From Thermoplasmatota archaeon (GTDB taxonomy: Archaea > Thermoplasmatota > Thermoplasmata > Methanomassiliicoccales > Methanomassiliicoccaceae), in contig JAKIXL010000035.1 in NCBI GenBank assembly GCA_022709105.1, forward strand, positions 2,617 through 11,571: DNA of 8,955 bases, written 5' to 3'. Positions 1-7,574 of the stretch are shown here, piece after piece (within the stretch, counting starts at the first letter, position 1; each line of letters begins with the position of its first letter). The position numbers and the translations under genes were made by a program. Below the pieces are notes generated by a model. It was not told the DNA's origin, ran no database searches, and was given only the letters and a program-made list of their open reading frames with translations.

Positions 1-215
1 CCGCCGGTCGGCCTAATGAGGCGGAGAACGCATCTACCAGTGGTGGTCTTTCCGCAGCCGCTCTCCCCCACTAGCCCGAGAGTCTCTCCCTTTCGGATAT
101 AGAACGATACGTCGTCCACCGCTCTCACCGCCGACGCGCTCCGGGAGAACAGGCTTTTACGGATGGGGAAATACTTCTTCATCCCCCTGACGTCGATGAG
201 GATGTCGTCGCTCAA
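1..215 (-). CDS. oppF: Peptide ABC transporter ATP-binding protein, OppF/DppF type (partial, N-terminal 71 residues)
   Basis: This is the second ATPase of the peptide importer. It would sit on the cytoplasmic face and pair with OppD to power transport. Only the first 71 codons are present and the 3' end runs off the left edge. Visible features are a YFPIRK motif near residues 15-20, an AVDDVSF strand (32-38) and a Walker A loop GESGCGKTT (50-58), an order typical of OppF/DppF proteins. The chosen start is TTG at 213-215, which overlaps the oppD stop in the tetranucleotide TTGA and is preceded by GGTGGAG as a plausible ribosome binding site. The next in-frame ATG (codon 12) would remove conserved N-terminal sequence. 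The Q-loop, signature and Walker B lie outside the window. The OppF role rests on position and N-terminal motifs, and the true substrate cannot be read from this. Confidence 0.9.
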
Positions 216-1474
216 TTCTCCACCCCCGTGTACAGATGGCAGGCCACTGAGTGACCGGGGGTTATCTCTATCATGGACGGCTTGTCGGTGGAGCATATGT
301 TCATGGCGTAAGGGCATCGGGGATGGAAGCGGCATCCGGTCGGAGGCTTGGTGAGGTTGGGAACGTTCCCCTCGATTATCTCCAGCCTCGGGAGCTCTAT
401 GTCTATGCGGGGGATGGCCGCCAGCAACCCGAGGGTATAGGGATGCAGCGGCTCCTTGAACAGCTCGCGCTTCGACGACAGCTCGACGATGTTGCCGGCG
501 TACATAACGCCCACGCGATCGCAGATCTCCGCGATGATGCCTAGATTATGGGTGATCATGAGGATGGTCGTCCCGGTATCCTTCTGCAGTTCACGCATGA
601 GCTTGATTATCTGCGCTTGGATGGTGACGTCCAAAGCGGTCGTAGGCTCATCGGCTATGAGCAATTGAGGCTTGCATGCCAAGGCCATGGCTATCATGAC
701 CCTTTGCTGCATCCCTCCAGAGAGCTCATAGGGATATGACTTGGATACGTTGATCGGATCGGGCACGCGTACCAGGCGGAGCATGTTGACCGCGCGCTCG
801 TTCGCCTCCTTGACCAACGGCCTCTCGTACCTCCGCAGCAGGGGCACCTTGGACATGAGCCTCAGCAGAAGAGCTTCGGGATCGGCCTGCATCCTCTTGT
901 AAAGGCTGCGATAGATCTTCAGCTTGATGCCGCCGGCGCCATTTCCTTGGTCGAAGCTCCGCAGGACCGCCGCAGCGAGCTCAGGCCGCTCGTGGAGAAG
1001 GATGACCTCCGCTATCTGATCACCGGCCGTGAACACTGGATTGAGGGAGCTCATGGGCTCCTGGAAGATCATGGATATGGCCTTCCCCCTCACCTTTCGG
1101 AGCTCCTCCTGCGACTTCCGGACGATGTCGTACTTTGCCAGCTCGGTATTGAGCTCGTCCCTGAGTCGGGCGGCCTCGGGGGCGCTTTCGTCCAAATGCT
1201 TCAGCTTCTCGCCTATGCTCTCCTTCTTCCTCCTTACCTCAGAGGGCATATCGAACAGTATCTGTCCCTTCTCGACCTTCCCCGGGGGGCTGGGAACGAG
1301 CTGCAGAATGGAATTGGCGGTGACGCTCTTGCCGCATCCGCTTTCGCCGACCAGGCCCAGAGCTTCACCCCTGTTTATCTTCAGATTGACACCGTCAAGA
1401 GCATAGACCACTCCGGATTTGGTGTAGAAGTTGACATACAGGTCCTCGATCTCAATGATGGTCTCAGAGCTCAT
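212..1474 (-). CDS. oppD: Peptide ABC transporter ATP-binding protein, OppD/DppD type, with two insertions
   Basis: This cytoplasmic ATPase of an oligo/dipeptide importer has 420 residues, against roughly 320-340 for usual family members. Walker A is GESGCGKS (43-50), the Q-loop is FQEP (Q138), the signature is LSGGMQQR (251-258), Walker B is LLIADEP (271-277) and the switch histidine is H309, so all catalytic elements are intact. The C-terminal oligopeptide-transporter domain carries four cysteines (C381, C387, C394, C412). In some OppD proteins this pattern binds an iron-sulfur cluster; that it does so here is inference. The extra length lies in two charged, probably helical segments at about 78-127 and 162-224. 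The start ATG follows a near-perfect AAGGAGGTGA site that contains the oppC stop codon, so translation is probably coupled. The gene overlaps oppF by 4 nt. Confidence in the family is high; substrate specificity is unknown. Confidence 0.95.
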
Positions 1475-2463: not shown

Positions 2464-3486
2464 TCACCCCAGCTTGACCCTTGGGTCGAGATATGCATAC
2501 ATGATATCCACTACCAGGTTCGCTATGACATAGATGAACGCTATCAGCAGGCAAAAGCCCAGGATCGAGGCGGTATCCATCCTCAATATCGACTTCGCCG
2601 ACCATCTCCCCAGTCCGGGCCATTGGAAGATAGATTCGGTAAGCACGGCTCCGCTGAGCAGGCCTCCAAAGGCCAGTCCGACGACAGTGGTCGTAGGTAT
2701 GAGGGCGTTCCTTCGGGCATGCTTCCGTATGACCGCTCTCTCCGGCACGCCCTTGGCCCTGGCGGTCTTTATGTAATCGAGATGCAGCACTTCCAGCATG
2801 CTGTTCCTCTGCATCCTGAGGATGAGCGCTATACTGGAGAACGAAAGTGTCACTGCAGGCAGGATCAGATGCCAGATGACGTCAGCGAAGAAGTTCAGAT
2901 TTCCCATGATCAGGGAATCGACGGTCATGAAACCGGTCACCAGGTTCTTGGTGACCCCGGTCAAGATGAAGATGTCGCTATACCTCCCGCCCTTGGGGAA
3001 CAGGCCGAGCTGGGCATAGAAGACCAACAACAGGAGAAGGCCGAGCCAGAAGACCGGGATAGAAACACCTATGAGCGATATGACCCGGGTCGTATGGTCG
3101 AACGGCCTGTTCTTCTTGACCGCCGATGTGGTCCCCAATGCGATGCCCGCGATTATGGCGATGATGATGCTGGTAAGTGCAAGTTCGAACGTTGCGGGCA
3201 AATAGTAGGCTATGGCGTCGGTAACTGGCATCGTCGCGGTCTTCGACCATCCCCAGTCCAGGTTCAGTATGCCATTGAGCCAGTAGAAGTATTGAACATA
3301 GACGGGTTCATTGAAATGGTATTTCTGGTAGACGTCGGCTATCTGTGAGGCGTTCATCTTTTCATTGATGTATGCCGCAGCAGGGTCCCCTGCCATCCGG
3401 GTCAGGGAGAAGATGATGATGGAAACCCCGATGAGAACGGGTATTATCAATAACAGCCGTCTGAATATATACCGTTTCAGACCCAT
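2464..3486 (-). CDS. oppB: Peptide ABC transporter permease, OppB/DppB type
   Basis: This is the first membrane permease subunit of the peptide importer, 340 residues and of normal length. It opens with MGLKRYIFRRLLLIIPVLIG, a typical OppB start with a membrane helix at about 9-29, followed by the conserved RMAGDPA segment (30-36) and an extracellular loop (40-95). Five more helices are predicted near 97-120, 134-160, 203-223, 262-283 and 308-331. The EAA loop, DYIKTARAKGVPERAVIRKH (237-256), contacts the ATPases, and the C-terminus YAYLDPRVKLG is family-typical. No Shine-Dalgarno sequence precedes the ATG. A TATA-like box centred about 33 nt upstream predicts a leader of only some 8 nt, so translation may be leaderless. 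This is the first gene of the oppBCDF unit, separated from the binding-protein gene by an oligo-T terminator and a promoter. Confidence 0.95.
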   Translation of the reverse strand: MGLKRYIFRRLLLIIPVLIGVSIIIFSLTRMAGDPAAAYINEKMNASQIADVYQKYHFNEPVYVQYFYWLNGILNLDWGWSKTATMPVTDAIAYYLPATFELALTSIIIAIIAGIALGTTSAVKKNRPFDHTTRVISLIGVSIPVFWLGLLLLLVFYAQLGLFPKGGRYSDIFILTGVTKNLVTGFMTVDSLIMGNLNFFADVIWHLILPAVTLSFSSIALILRMQRNSMLEVLHLDYIKTARAKGVPERAVIRKHARRNALIPTTTVVGLAFGGLLSGAVLTESIFQWPGLGRWSAKSILRMDTASILGFCLLIAFIYVIANLVVDIMYAYLDPRVKLG

Positions 3487-3625: not shown

Positions 3626-5485
3626 TTACAGCTCGAACCTGGCGATCGCGGCAACTACCTCGTCCAGCGCGGAGGCGGACGAAGTGCCGGCCGGCAGCTT
3701 GGCCGCCTTCAGGTATTCCTTGGCCTTTTCGAGATTGTAGTCGTAGATGGGGACATCAGCGCTGTAGCCGAACATGCCCTTTGGTATGGCTCCGTTAGGC
3801 TGCAGTGCGGTGCCCTGCAGGGTGTTCTCGATATAGGTCGAATACTTGAAGGCGTGAGCGAACGCTAGCCTGACGTTCTTGTCGGCGAAGAAGTCCGACG
3901 GGACGTTGGTCAGGTCGGGGTTGGCGCCGGTCAGGTTCAGCTTCTGGTTCAGGCCCAGGAAGTCCACGTTGAACGAGGGGGAGCCGGTCCTCAGGACCAC
4001 GCCTTCCATAGCTTCAAGGGTGGTCTTCTTGTCGCGGGGAATGGCCGCAGCGTCCACATCTCCGTTCTGGAGCTGAAGGATCCTGGTGCCAACCTCGGGG
4101 ACCTGGCTGATGATCACGTGGGCCAGGGCAGCGGGTTCCCTCCAGTAGTTGTCGTTCCTGTCCAGGTTGTAGTATGCATCAGTGGCGAAATCGCCAAGAA
4201 CGAACGGACCAGTGCCCATCATGTGAGTGCTCATGAAGGTATATCCGTTCTTGGACAGCCCGCCGTCGGCCTCCACGTAGCTCTTGGAGACAATGGACCC
4301 AGCGTTGAAGGCAAGGGTGCTCAGGAACGCAGGGTAGGGCTGGGTCAGGTTGAACTGGACGGTGTCGCTGTCGACGACCCAAATGGCGGCATCGCACATG
4401 GCCTGAGTGATCTCGGGCTGCATGACGCCGGCATCGGTGAAGGTCGCCATGCCGTAGTTGTAGTAGTCAGGTATCAGGACCTGACCATACATCCAGAACG
4501 GCCCGTGCGGGTCGTTGTACATGAGGCCGCGGTCAAAGCTGTACTTGACATCCTCGGCGGTCATGGGGGTCCCATCGCTGAACTCGACACCGGAGCGGAT
4601 GTTGAAGGTGTAGGTCAGCCCGTCCGCGGAGATGCCGCCGTTCTCGATCGTGGGGACCTCTGTGGCCAGCATCGGAATGAGGTCGCTGGAAGAGGTGCCG
4701 TTGTACCAAACCAGGGTCTCATACACGTTCTGGAGCAGTTCACCGCCCACGGTCTCGTAGTCGACAACTGGGTCGAAGCTCTCTGCATTACCGTCGATAC
4801 TAGCATATCTAAAGGTCGTAGTGTCGGCGGCCGCCTCCGTCTTGCTGAGAGAGTAGTAGTACAGGTTGGAGTACATGGGGTTGTACGCGTAACCCTCCAC
4901 CCAGTTCCTCTGCGCGGCGAAGTTGTTGGCCTGGGCGGTCCATACATAGATGCACTCTTCGTACATGTCCATGCTGATCTCTTTGTACAGCGCAGCCCTC
5001 TGAGTGTCATCGAGCTCAGCGGCAGCGGCGGCGATCATGGCGTCAAGGGTCGCGTTGTTGTAACCTATCATTGACGCATAGGTCCCACCGGACAGGTAGA
5101 AGGGCTGGAGATAGTCGTCCGGATCAGCATAGTCAGGCGCCCATCCGAGGAACATCGCGGCCATCTTGCCGGTCTTCCTGTACTCGAGGTAGTTGGACCA
5201 TTCGAGAGGAGTGACCGTAATCTTGATCTTGCCGGGGTTCAGGGACTCTAGGCCTGATTTGATCAGTTCACAAGCGGTCTGGCGGGCCGTATTTCCGGAA
5301 TTATAGAAGATCTCCAGATTAAAGCCCTTATCGAGCCAGTTGTCTGCCTGCTCGCTCTTGCCCTGATTGCCAAGGACCAAGACGGCGGCAGCAATCGCGG
5401 CGATCAGCAATACGGCTACGACGATGACCGCCAATAGCTTCTTGCTCATGCCGCGTTTTTTTGCAGCAGGTGCACTTCCTTCCAT
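3626..5485 (-). CDS. oppA: Membrane-anchored peptide ABC substrate-binding protein (SBP_bac_5) with circularly permuted domain order
   Basis: This extracytoplasmic binding protein of 619 residues should deliver peptides to OppBC. It has a cytoplasmic basic tail (K9, K10, R11, K15, K16) and one membrane helix (about 17-38). No lipobox cysteine follows, so it is probably an uncleaved anchor. The fold is SBP_bac_5 but the order is unusual. Residues 53-215 hold the normally C-terminal third: GFNLEIFYNSGN (54-65), GWAPDYADPDDYL (114-126) and VEGYAYNP (196-203). After a short TEAAAD linker (216-221) comes the normally N-terminal part: FRYASIDGNAESFDP (225-239), LTYTFNIRSGVEFSDGTP (290-307), GTGPF (424-428), NDNYW (444-448), and EKAKEYLKAAKLP (586-598), after which GF-x-L would normally follow. 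A short unique tail (601-619) ends the protein. Each part occurs once. The start is supported by AAGGAGG about 7 nt upstream. The gene is monocistronic, with its own promoter and terminator. Confidence 0.93.
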   Translation of the reverse strand: MEGSAPAAKKRGMSKKLLAVIVVAVLLIAAIAAAVLVLGNQGKSEQADNWLDKGFNLEIFYNSGNTARQTACELIKSGLESLNPGKIKITVTPLEWSNYLEYRKTGKMAAMFLGWAPDYADPDDYLQPFYLSGGTYASMIGYNNATLDAMIAAAAAELDDTQRAALYKEISMDMYEECIYVWTAQANNFAAQRNWVEGYAYNPMYSNLYYYSLSKTEAAADTTTFRYASIDGNAESFDPVVDYETVGGELLQNVYETLVWYNGTSSSDLIPMLATEVPTIENGGISADGLTYTFNIRSGVEFSDGTPMTAEDVKYSFDRGLMYNDPHGPFWMYGQVLIPDYYNYGMATFTDAGVMQPEITQAMCDAAIWVVDSDTVQFNLTQPYPAFLSTLAFNAGSIVSKSYVEADGGLSKNGYTFMSTHMMGTGPFVLGDFATDAYYNLDRNDNYWREPAALAHVIISQVPEVGTRILQLQNGDVDAAAIPRDKKTTLEAMEGVVLRTGSPSFNVDFLGLNQKLNLTGANPDLTNVPSDFFADKNVRLAFAHAFKYSTYIENTLQGTALQPNGAIPKGMFGYSADVPIYDYNLEKAKEYLKAAKLPAGTSSASALDEVVAAIARFEL

Positions 5486-5736: not shown

Positions 5737-6432
5737 TCACCCATCAAGGGCGATGGAGGAAACTATCTCAACGTCCGAGGGGTTCATGTCCCAAATCAGC
5801 CTGCGGGCCTCCTCGAGCTTGCGGCGCTTGATCGCAAGGTCCTTGCCCTCCTTCGGCCTAGGGTCATCGAGGTCGAAGCCCGCGAGGAATATTCTCTTAG
5901 CCCCGAAATGCCGGGCGAGCATCACCGCCCTGTCCCCGTCTGTGAAGCCCCCGAAATTATGCACGCCGTCGAACGGCCGGGATTGGGTTGTAAGGACAAT
6001 GGGTCCGGTGAACCAGGGGACGTATCTCTCGATGGCCTCAACATTGTCGCCGTGCGCTAGGATCACAACTATCGAACCTTGTGCGTTTGCCGAAAGCTGA
6101 TCGGGCACGTTCCCATCCAGATCTGTGACTATCACGTCCGGGACCTTCCCGAGGGTGTGCATCAGCGTGGAGGTCGCTCCGTCCGCTGCGATCACCGTTC
6201 CTCTTAAAGGCGCTTTCTTCAGCTCTAGTTCAAGGCCGGGCCCGTCGCCTACAACCGTGGCCTCGACGCCCATTCGGCTGCGGAGGCATGAGGGAGCGCA
6301 CGTCTCCTTGCCCTTTGCCAGCTCATAGAGCCTCAACGCAGCAAGCTCGTCCTCTCGGATCGAAAAGCCGAAATCGCTCGCAATGCGAAGGTAGTGAGGT
6401 TCCCAGTCCGCATAGTCCATCGGTCCGCTCAC
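5737..6432 (-). CDS. mptE: 6-hydroxymethyl-7,8-dihydropterin pyrophosphokinase, MptE-like (DUF115)
   Basis: Enzymes of this archaeal family transfer pyrophosphate from ATP to 6-hydroxymethyl-7,8-dihydropterin, a step towards methanopterin or folate-type cofactors. They replace the unrelated bacterial FolK. The protein has 231 residues and is soluble. Family-type motifs are all present: VGDGPGLE (61-68), AADGATS (82-88), DVIVTDLDGN (99-108), AHGDN (126-130), NFGGFTDGDRA (159-169) and AGFDLDD (184-190). The aspartate-rich motifs probably bind Mg-ATP. The annotated start is GTG at 6430-6432, which overlaps the DUF373 stop as GTGA. An ATG four codons later (6418-6420), with GGAGTGA at a good distance, is equally plausible. 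The family call is by motif recognition. Which pterin pathway it serves depends on the host, which the window does not reveal. Confidence 0.87.
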   Translation of the reverse strand: MSGPMDYADWEPHYLRIASDFGFSIREDELAALRLYELAKGKETCAPSCLRSRMGVEATVVGDGPGLELELKKAPLRGTVIAADGATSTLMHTLGKVPDVIVTDLDGNVPDQLSANAQGSIVVILAHGDNVEAIERYVPWFTGPIVLTTQSRPFDGVHNFGGFTDGDRAVMLARHFGAKRIFLAGFDLDDPRPKEGKDLAIKRRKLEEARRLIWDMNPSDVEIVSSIALDG

Positions 6433-7574
6433 TCCGCGCTCTCCACTGGATCGCCGCTCTCCGCTCCCTTCTGTTTCCCGTTCATCCCCCTCAAGGACGT
6501 ATTGAGAAGGGCCCCGAAGACCGCCAGAAGGAACCCGGCCATGATCTCCAAGAAGATCACCGCTTGATCATAGTTGCGGAACCCAAAGAAAACCTGAGTA
6601 GCGTCCAAGGCCCCCTGGAGGATGAAGCCCAGGGCGAATATCGTGACCGAGGCAACGAGATACGAGTACTGAAGAACGCCCTTGGACAGATAGTCATTGA
6701 TGAACAGGCCGACCTGGAAGGTGAAGTAGGCGAACACGCACATCCACATGAAGCCGCCCACGAACAGCACGATCTTCTCCAGCACCTCGGCCTCGGGGTC
6801 CGACAGAGCCGCGTCCAGTCCGTAAAGCAGACCTAACAGGAATATCATGATCGCCAGCACAGCGAAGGGTAGCATGGTGCTTCCTTCCTTCACCGCGGTT
6901 TGCGTCTCCTTCCACCACTCCCTTGCCCTATCTCCGGCCTTGTACGCGAACATAACCAGGTACAGGCCGACGACCGCCCAGATCATGGCCAGCCCCATGT
7001 TGGTGAACGACACCTCGGCTGAGCCCTGGAACAGCATTATGATGGGGTCCAGGAGAGCGAATATGCCGAACACGAGAAGCGCCAGGCCGATGGGTACGAC
7101 GATGCGCTTTCTGACCTTTTCGTCGTTCAGCATTTTGATCAGGATGTAGTACGTGCCTTCGACCGTGGGCACCTGCTTGACAAAGACCTTGCGCACGGAG
7201 TCGACCTTCACCCTCGAAGAGACCACGGGATAGATGTACTCATCCTCAGCTCCGTCGGAGACCAGCACGACCCGGTCAGGCCTTACAAGGCCCAATACGG
7301 TCTCCAGCTGTGTAGAGAGCACCAGATCGCTCTCGTATCCAACGTGCACGTCCCCGCAAATGGTGGCGATCTCCACGTCCATTCCCTTCTTGATCATCTC
7401 ATCGTAGATGCTTATGGCCGCCAGAAGGGTGTTGGTATCTGAGTCTTCAGCGTCCTTGAGGCCCAGCCCTATAGCTGCTTTGAGATTTTCCTCCCGGCCG
7501 ACGAAAGGACTGTTGAGACCGGCCTTGACACCGAAGTCATCGTCCCGGTCCACGCAGAGAACTAGAATCCTCAT
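6429..7574 (-). CDS. DUF373 family integral membrane protein
   Basis: This is an archaeal membrane protein of unknown function, 381 residues. The soluble N-terminal domain (1-155) begins MRILVLCVDRDDDFG and contains the family-like segments SPFVGREENLKAAIGLGL (22-39), DAEDSDTNTLLAAI (41-54) and VLVSDGAEDE (103-112). The acidic DRDDD and DGAEDE motifs look like metal or nucleotide sites, but no reaction is known to me. Six hydrophobic helices follow at about 158-181, 192-211, 234-256, 266-289, 302-321 and 336-358, then a charged tail. It overlaps mptE by 4 nt, so the two are co-transcribed and probably translationally coupled. No clear ribosome binding site precedes the ATG, and the nearby TATA-like box suggests a near-leaderless transcript. 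Confidence 0.88.
   Translation of the reverse strand: MRILVLCVDRDDDFGVKAGLNSPFVGREENLKAAIGLGLKDAEDSDTNTLLAAISIYDEMIKKGMDVEIATICGDVHVGYESDLVLSTQLETVLGLVRPDRVVLVSDGAEDEYIYPVVSSRVKVDSVRKVFVKQVPTVEGTYYILIKMLNDEKVRKRIVVPIGLALLVFGIFALLDPIIMLFQGSAEVSFTNMGLAMIWAVVGLYLVMFAYKAGDRAREWWKETQTAVKEGSTMLPFAVLAIMIFLLGLLYGLDAALSDPEAEVLEKIVLFVGGFMWMCVFAYFTFQVGLFINDYLSKGVLQYSYLVASVTIFALGFILQGALDATQVFFGFRNYDQAVIFLEIMAGFLLAVFGALLNTSLRGMNGKQKGAESGDPVESAE

What the first reader, a model, noticed from the sequence alone, without database searches (positions are those of the whole stretch)
3626..5485. Apparent natural circular permutation of an OppA/DppA-type binding protein
In every SBP_bac_5 protein I know, such as E. 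coli DppA, the TYTFxLRxGVxWHD region lies near the N-terminus. The EKAKxLLKEAG helix followed by GFxxxL begins the last third, and the GW...DPDN...F motif and a xGYxxxP segment lie near the C-terminus. Here the order is reversed. GFNLEIFYNSGN and GWAPDYADPDDYL come first (54-126) and VEGYAYNP ends that part (196-203). FRYASIDGN...TYTFNIRSGVEFSDG follows (225-304), and EKAKEYLKAAKLP comes last (586-598). The cut falls exactly between LKAA and GFxL, and the two parts together make one complete domain with no motif duplicated. I infer a true circular permutant, not a fusion or duplication. I cannot say whether it has been described before.
Basis: partly seen in the sequence, partly recalled or inferred. 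Interest (0 to 1): 0.88.

Follow-up and report, generated by a model that had tools for sequence, protein, structure and literature searches.

The report
Repeatedly re-ordered archaeal peptide-binding protein
This archaeal gene encodes a protein of the peptide-binding family whose chain is circularly re-ordered (the last third comes first); relatives at the same locus carry either order, so the order has likely switched more than once, and the protein is predicted to catch nutrients with its membrane anchor moved to its other lobe.

Summary
The 619-aa minus-strand product matches the SBP_bac_5 (PF00496) profile once, in two swapped pieces. It is no assembly error: 53 of the 120 listed homologues share the order and cut, and permuted copies sit at the same place (DUF373-MptE-SBP, OppBCD after it where the contig goes on) in ten genomes. 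Conventional homologues occupy the same slot in others. The permuted label fits the OppBCD tree (3 changes) better than the upstream-gene tree (7). Trees of the SBP and, separately, of OppBCD reject one permuted clade (p 5e-5, 1e-52). A C-terminal tail shared by the permuted groups favours one gain followed by reversal; independent gains remain possible. The same cut recurs in other Thermoplasmata, once 87-88% identical to a conventional gene; a different cut occurs in P0266, 94-96% identical to conventional P0292. Junctions fit tandem duplication, fusion and truncation. Likely function: membrane-tethered peptide catcher for OppBCDF, its tether moved to the other lobe. My searches found one natural SBP permutant in print, in another SBP cluster (TpMglB-2).

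The parts
3626..5485 (-). circularly permuted SBP_bac_5 (cluster C) substrate-binding protein, 619 aa
   Evidence: pairwise dN 0.110, dS 0.804 against the G020 gene
5354..5485 (-). N-terminal leader, residues 1-44, with one hydrophobic stretch (about 20-38; basic residues before it, no Cys): predicted membrane anchor
   Evidence: hydropathy 3.41 over 19 residues; helix 15-37 in the model, low confidence there
4841..5353 (-). residues 45-215 = last third of the canonical domain (profile 366-536), here first; holds D118, aligned to DppA D436 (precursor numbering)
   Evidence: D118 invariant in 44 and 16 aligned permuted proteins
4802..4840 (-). residues 216-228, new linker joining old C-terminus to old N-terminus; in several relatives it keeps a (D/N)PDT spacer like the one after the anchor of conventional proteins
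3698..4801 (-). residues 229-596 = first two thirds of the canonical domain (profile 1-369), here second
   Evidence: model residues 223-598 on DppA 1-344
3629..3697 (-). residues 597-619, C-terminal tail found on permuted proteins, not on conventional ones; fold not predicted confidently
   Evidence: motif in last 10 residues of 41 of 50 permuted vs 0 of 65 conventional proteins, motif chosen after looking at the tails; pLDDT <50 for 601-619
2464..3486 (-). OppB/DppB-type permease
   Evidence: PF00528, PF19300
1479..2498 (-). OppC/DppC-type permease
   Evidence: PF00528, PF12911
212..1474 (-). OppD/DppD-type ATPase with C-terminal Cys motif spaced 6/7/18, the spacing of the [4Fe-4S] cysteines of E. 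coli DppD
   Evidence: PF00005, PF08352; spacing from the sequence and a passage of PMC12136057
5737..6432 (-). MptE-like 6-hydroxymethylpterin diphosphokinase, conserved upstream neighbour
   Evidence: PF01973; synteny
6429..7574 (-). DUF373 membrane protein, conserved upstream neighbour
   Evidence: PF04123; synteny

Best explanation
The gene encodes a naturally circularly permuted SBP_bac_5 substrate-binding protein (last third first, then the first two thirds, each once), which likely works as the membrane-tethered peptide catcher of the OppBCD(F) transporter encoded next to it. SHOWN by sequence: the swapped order, the single coverage of the domain, the same order and cut in many relatives, conventional-order homologues in the same syntenic slot, and a better fit of the order to the OppBCD tree than to the upstream-gene tree. 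PREDICTED: the chain closes into the usual two-lobed fold (confident model). INFERRED: it captures a ligand by the usual flytrap motion and hands it to OppB/OppC; the invariant acidic residue D118, aligned to DppA D436 that contacts the dipeptide's amino group, suggests a peptide ligand. INFERRED: the permutation arose by head-to-tail tandem duplication, in-frame fusion and loss of the outer pieces, because in the clearest pairs the new linker keeps the old post-anchor spacer and the new N-terminal junction keeps residues from before the cut. INFERRED: its consequence is to move the single membrane anchor from the N-lobe terminus to a strand of the C-lobe. Within Methanomassiliicoccales I favour one gain of the permuted order followed by one or two reversals to the normal order; in the class as a whole, further independent permutations, and at least one more at a different cut.
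For: Order and coverage. Recurrence: 53 of 120 listed homologues (552 in all) permuted at the same cut; 9 complete plus 1 contig-cut permuted genes among 147 genomes of the order. Synteny: DUF373 and MptE upstream in 10 of 10 permuted loci, OppB downstream in 8 of 10 (in the other two the gene lies at the contig end); 4 of 4 short conventional loci have the same flanks. Upstream-gene tree (30 rows): permuted label needs 7 changes; OppBCD tree (27 rows): 3. One permuted clade rejected by the SBP (AU p 4.6e-5), by its N part (0.001) and by OppBCD (1.2e-52). Tail: 41/50 vs 0/65, cross-group profiles z 1.8-11.6. Other permutations: G282 vs G352 87-88% identical; 120 of 120 listed homologues of the G200 protein permuted; P0266 vs P0292 95.9% and 93.9% in swapped order, leaders 87% over 47 residues. 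Fold. Selection: dN 0.110, dS 0.804.
Against: No solved structure, expression or transport data for any of these proteins. The C part alone does not reject one permuted clade (AU p 0.135). The tests were run after seeing trees, on hand-picked rows; the wider trees carry long-branch warnings. No tandem or C-N-C intermediate was found among the 120 listed homologues, and conventional genes nested among permuted ones show no remnant of a past permuted state. The tail is placed at pLDDT <50 and its likeness between orders is weak. The DppA arginine that contacts the peptide carboxylate (R383) is not evidently conserved (by ungapped extension it meets N62), so the ligand is open. In G282 no OppBC follows the permuted gene, so that copy may be non-functional or use other permeases.
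Confidence: 0.86

Rival explanations
1. Permutation arose several times independently at the same cut within Methanomassiliicoccales, and no reversal ever happened; the shared tail is convergence imposed by the new C-terminus.
For: The same cut recurs in clearly separate lineages (G282 inside conventional f18 genes, the G200-type clade), so the site is prone to it. Tail likeness also appears, weakly, in the distant G200-type proteins. No remnant of a permuted state in conventional genes.
Against: It needs 4 gains against 1 gain plus 2 losses on the OppBCD tree; tail profiles trained on one permuted group recognise the others (z 1.8-11.6; groups hold related rows, so z is inflated) while conventional C-termini score far below.
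Confidence: 0.35
2. Misassembly or chimeric gene in a MAG.
For: The window's genome is a fragmented MAG (319 contigs, 80% complete).
Against: Same order at 84% and 81% identity on independent assemblies (contigs of 328,856 and 64,256 bases), in 53 of 120 listed homologues, with intact leader and stop and low dN/dS.
Confidence: 0.01
3. Fusion of two partial SBP domains or a tandem duplicate, not a permutation.
For: Such a state is the expected evolutionary intermediate.
Against: The canonical profile is covered once, 366-536 then 1-369; each of the 120 listed homologues gave one match to the N part and one to the C part.
Confidence: 0.02
4. The order is switched by a programmed or site-specific DNA rearrangement (phase variation), so one organism can make both proteins.
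For: Both orders occupy one locus in related species, close permuted/conventional pairs exist, and genome G282 carries its permuted gene together with a conventional paralogue elsewhere (81% and 69% identical in the two parts).
Against: No locus shows both orders of this gene; the six window genes scanned include no recombinase (further neighbours were not scanned); the closest pairs lie in different genomes or contigs.
Confidence: 0.04
5. The permuted protein is not a transport SBP but a membrane-anchored sensor or scavenger that kept the fold.
For: SBP-like domains serve as receptors elsewhere (general knowledge).
Against: Pfam finds no signalling domain on it; the order goes with OppBCD.
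Confidence: 0.08

Closest known systems
E. coli DppA / cluster C (SBP_bac_5) peptide-binding proteins, e.g. 1dpp, 8z1y (PMC12136057, passages read)
   Same: Same domain by Pfam and PDB sequence search; N part of the model superposes on DppA; beside OppB/C/D genes; DppA D436 position conserved (D118).
   Different: Chain starts at the canonical position about 366 of 536 (after DppA mature residue about 344); predicted N-terminal transmembrane anchor; extra C-terminal tail; DppA R383 not evidently kept.
TpMglB-2 (Tp0684), a naturally circularly permuted glucose-binding protein; proposed 'Type Ic / Cluster Bc' (PMC4990184, abstract and passages read)
   Same: Natural circular permutation of an ABC-transporter binding protein that is tethered to a membrane; its authors also suggested anchoring as a possible reason.
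   Different: Cluster B sugar-binding protein; bacterial; its permuted part is poorly conserved in sequence; no locus with both orders and no reversal in the passages I read.
Conventional-order homologues in the same syntenic slot (G009, G022, G141, G142; P0013-type) and PKD-stalked forms
   Same: 52-64% identical to the window protein in each part, same flanking genes, same kind of leader.
   Different: Normal order, no tail; the PKD forms have a median 228 residues between anchor and domain, against 16 (permuted) and 21 (short conventional).

Membership tests
SBP_bac_5 / PF00496 | Match to the curated profile above its cut-off | tested here: met
   253.7 bits against 32.4
SBP_bac_5 / PF00496 | Profile matched in its linear order | tested here: not met
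   Profile 284-366 precedes 2-282: a permuted variant of the family
Circular permutant | Both pieces present once, order swapped, whole domain covered | tested here: met
   366-536 then 1-369 of 536
Circular permutant | Pieces pack into the parent fold with new termini at one site | tested here: inconclusive
   Confident model, N part superposes on DppA; no permutation-aware superposition of the C part, no solved structure
Opp/Dpp-type ABC importer (OppABCDF) | SBP gene with two permeases and ATPases in one cluster | tested here: met
   OppB, OppC, OppD in the window; a second, OppF-like ATPase gene follows in relatives (named by its weaker OppD match and place)
DppA dipeptide-binding equivalog (NF043070) | Score above the equivalog cut-off | tested here: not met
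   130 against 1005 bits
Peptide-binding SBP | Binds peptides | not testable with these tools
   Only D118 conservation suggests it
TpMglB-2-like 'Cluster Bc' SBPs | Cluster B (MglB-type) domain, permuted | tested here: not met
   Pfam gives PF00496 as the one family above cut-off; the solved relatives listed are SBP_bac_5-type proteins

The most novel reading that the evidence does not exclude
At one fixed chromosomal locus of Methanomassiliicoccales, a binding-protein gene was circularly permuted and later put back into the normal order at least once, and the same kind of permutation (two different cuts) arose anew several times in archaeal peptide-binding proteins: chain order in this family is an evolutionarily reversible trait, selected because it changes which lobe is tied to the membrane.
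Probability: 0.5. Interest if true: 0.88.

Novelty: new variant of a known kind. Interest (0 to 1): 0.78.

Why it matters
Natural circular permutations are often inferred from distant relatives, after the event has blurred (my general knowledge). Here both orders sit in one syntenic slot, the permuted form is found in many species, the window gene looks constrained (dN well under dS), and two pairs (87-88% and 94-96% identical in protein) keep both junctions readable. That makes the duplication-fusion route, its recurrence and its possible reversal directly testable. It also offers a natural experiment on how the point of tethering affects a substrate-binding protein, an idea raised for TpMglB-2. 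In practice, linear profile searches report such genes as two fragments or plain SBPs and hide the permutation.

Tried and rejected
Tail as a remnant of the segment after the cut: rejected, mean z 0.17 over 58 rows, one of which was a wrong ORF. Tail shared between Methanomassiliicoccales and the G200-type proteins: suggestive only (z 0.7-3.7 for 10 rows; the anchor was chosen by eye); G282 tail z 1.28, not significant. Remnants of the permuted state in conventional genes: none seen. Tandem or double-domain intermediates: none among the 120 listed homologues; a 2087-aa ORF in G001 gave one SBP match. Alternative-cut permutants in genomes: none full-span among 389 genomes drawn from the phylum, at most three candidates scored per genome; the same limit holds, so its permuted counts are lower bounds. 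Other permuted SBPs in print: full-text searches (listings only, apart from passages of PMC4990184 and of PMC12136057) gave TpMglB-2 as the one natural SBP permutant; the library lacks most subscription papers, so this is not proof of absence. I saw no report of a permuted cluster C SBP or of a reversed permutation in those listings.

Rows dropped or labelled by hand: tree used 115 of 120 proteins (5 partial permuted ones left out); searches used 54 and 45 of these, picked by hand for spread; one search labelled 33 of the 40 loci by hand (PKD label by ORF length or by likeness, including contig-cut G003, G128 and the 631-aa G135) and used 30 and 27 of them; one search used 23 of 27, leaving out G008, G015, G019, G021 as long or divergent; (56 rows, p 1e-26 against one permuted clade, 5 changes) has an outgroup that is not one side of a branch; one search left out three conventional f27 rows that I had cropped wrongly (G267, G325, G310), and G279 was 24% filled; tail counts used 50 of 53 permuted and 65 of 67 conventional proteins. 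A dN/dS for the G018 gene was asked for but not returned; for G282/G352 dS was saturated. The spacer figures cover proteins that begin with ME; one or more permuted rows gave an impossible value (range -43 to 23), so only medians are quoted.

Full report
OBSERVATION. The reported gene is an intact 619-codon ORF on the minus strand (3626-5485) with a Shine-Dalgarno-like GGAGG (5497-5493) before its ATG. The quoted motifs are at the quoted residues. Pfam PF00496 matches in two stretches in swapped order: residues 269-601 with profile 2-282, and about residues 49-135 with profile 284-366. A 536-position profile that I built from 67 conventional homologues is matched as 366-536 and then 1-369, that is, once, with four positions of overlap at the cut. 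Solved relatives align the same way.

NOT AN ARTEFACT. Of 552 homologues, 120 were listed; 53 have the permuted and 67 the conventional order. In the order (147 genomes, 37 with a match) nine complete permuted genes and one cut by a contig end were found. Two independent named assemblies carry it at 84% and 81% identity. Against the G020 gene, dN is 0.110 and dS 0.804.

SAME LOCUS, TWO ORDERS. In 10 of 10 permuted genomes of the order, DUF373 and MptE lie upstream; OppB lies downstream in 8, the other two genes being at contig ends. The four genomes with short conventional homologues, and many with a PKD-stalked conventional form, have the same arrangement. The tree of the upstream genes (30 rows) needs 7 changes of the permuted label; the tree of OppBCD (27 rows) needs 3, with PKD forms on one side of a branch. 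So the SBP-OppBCD cassette seems to be exchanged between genomes at a fixed place, and the order travels with it (inference from the trees).

HOW OFTEN DID IT SWITCH. On a 54-row SBP tree rooted on the PKD forms, one conventional group (11 rows) lies inside permuted ones, and a single permuted clade is rejected (AU p 4.6e-5). The N part alone gives 0.001; the C part alone does not reject (0.135). OppBCD, a separate marker, rejects it strongly (p 1.2e-52; 23 rows). There conventional G009 and G022 fall in one group with permuted G000, G018, G020 and G012 (support 100/99), with G012 outermost (94/94, not starred). Three changes suffice: one gain and two losses; gains alone need four. Permuted proteins share a C-terminal tail (41 of 50 against 0 of 65 conventional), and tail profiles of one permuted group recognise the others (z 1.8-11.6; rows within groups are related, so these z values are inflated). 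This favours one gain and later reversal, but does not prove it; no remnant was found in the conventional genes.

BEYOND THE ORDER. In the class search (400 genomes drawn from a larger group) permuted genes also appear in two other groups. In family f18, which holds a genome whose contig length equals that of Aciduliprofundum sp. MAR08-339, only G282 of 8 matching genomes (18 searched) is permuted. Its gene is 87-88% identical in both parts to the conventional gene of G352, with 7.3 kb of alignable upstream sequence; no OppBC follows it, and the same genome has a conventional paralogue elsewhere (81% and 69%). In the order of G200 (37 genomes) ten complete permuted genes were found (orders checked), and 120 of 120 listed homologues of the G200 protein (327 in all) are permuted, 93 ending in an [AV]RD motif. 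A 55-row tree with all of these needs 7 changes among three states (long-branch warnings). The third state is a different cut: P0266 and P0349 begin at about canonical position 300 and end at about 271-275. P0266 is 95.9% and 93.9% identical, in swapped order, to conventional P0292, with the leader 87% identical over 47 residues. No genome of 389 in the phylum search showed this cut (at most three candidates scored per genome).

MECHANISM OF ORIGIN (inferred). In P0266 the new linker reads on from the old C-terminus into the VKNPDT spacer that follows the leader in P0292, and the new N-terminal junction keeps the SE..FMADPAV residues from around the cut (sequences). The G282 linker and many Methanomassiliicoccales linkers likewise hold (D/N)PDT-F; the window's own linker reads DTTTF. 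This is what a head-to-tail duplication, an in-frame fusion of copy 1's end to copy 2's post-anchor spacer, and loss of the outer pieces would leave. No intermediate was found.

MECHANISM OF ACTION (inferred). The protein has one N-terminal hydrophobic stretch without cysteine, and a spacer to the domain of median 16 residues in permuted proteins, 21 in short conventional ones and 228 in PKD forms (43, 31 and 26 proteins). It therefore likely sits tethered on the outer face and hands its ligand to OppB/OppC. The permutation would move the tether from the start of the N-lobe to a strand of the C-lobe (lobe assignment of DppA recalled, not from a call). D118, aligned with DppA D436, which contacts the bound dipeptide (PMC12136057, passages), is invariant in 44 and in 16 aligned permuted proteins, which suggests a peptide ligand; DppA R383 falls in an unaligned stretch and its position is probably N62. 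The OppD cysteines have the 6/7/18 spacing of the DppD iron-sulfur motif.

COMPARISON. TpMglB-2 is a solved natural permutant of a cluster B sugar-binding protein, whose authors proposed a separate sub-class and suggested tethering as a possible reason (PMC4990184, abstract and passages). Ten full-text searches found no permuted cluster C protein and no reversed permutation in their listings; the library is partial. I therefore file this as a new variant of a known kind: a member of SBP_bac_5 by sequence that fails the family's linear order.

VERDICT. Permutation real (near certain); same-locus order switching well supported; reversal more likely than not; tethering as the reason is a hypothesis.

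Noticed in passing
P0266 and P0349 (public proteins): A second, different natural circular permutation of the same family, cut near canonical position 285 (between the ..LHIQTK strand and the FMADPAVR helix), on leaders with a lipobox-like SGC/AGC; P0266 is 94-96% identical to conventional P0292.
   Followed up: partly
L091:8291-10036 (G282) against L103:7163-8869 (G352): Permuted gene whose conventional counterpart in the same genus is 87-88% identical; no OppBC follows it, and the next ORF looks MATE-like (by eye).
   Followed up: partly
L051-L090, PKD forms (e.g. P0086, P0105): At the same locus many Methanomassiliicoccales carry a conventional SBP on a PKD-domain stalk (median 228 residues) after the anchor: tethering varies in length as well as in attachment point.
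   Followed up: partly
window 212-1474: OppD seems to have two insertions (about residues 79-120 and 170-215) compared with typical OppD (by eye); several homologues in the order are also long (437-516 aa ORFs).
   Followed up: no
L070 (contig C248) 1736-2470 and next to it, outside the window: The OppF-like gene of the window's own genome seems split into two ORFs, unlike relatives; possibly a frameshift in the MAG.
   Followed up: no
L115:4913-7296 (G207): A G200-type permuted gene split into two overlapping ORFs; frameshift or sequencing error.
   Followed up: no
C-termini of permuted SBPs (window 3629-3697): Conserved tail ending in a hydrophobic-A-R/K-I/L/D-like motif in most permuted proteins and no conventional one counted; function and origin unexplained.
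   Followed up: partly
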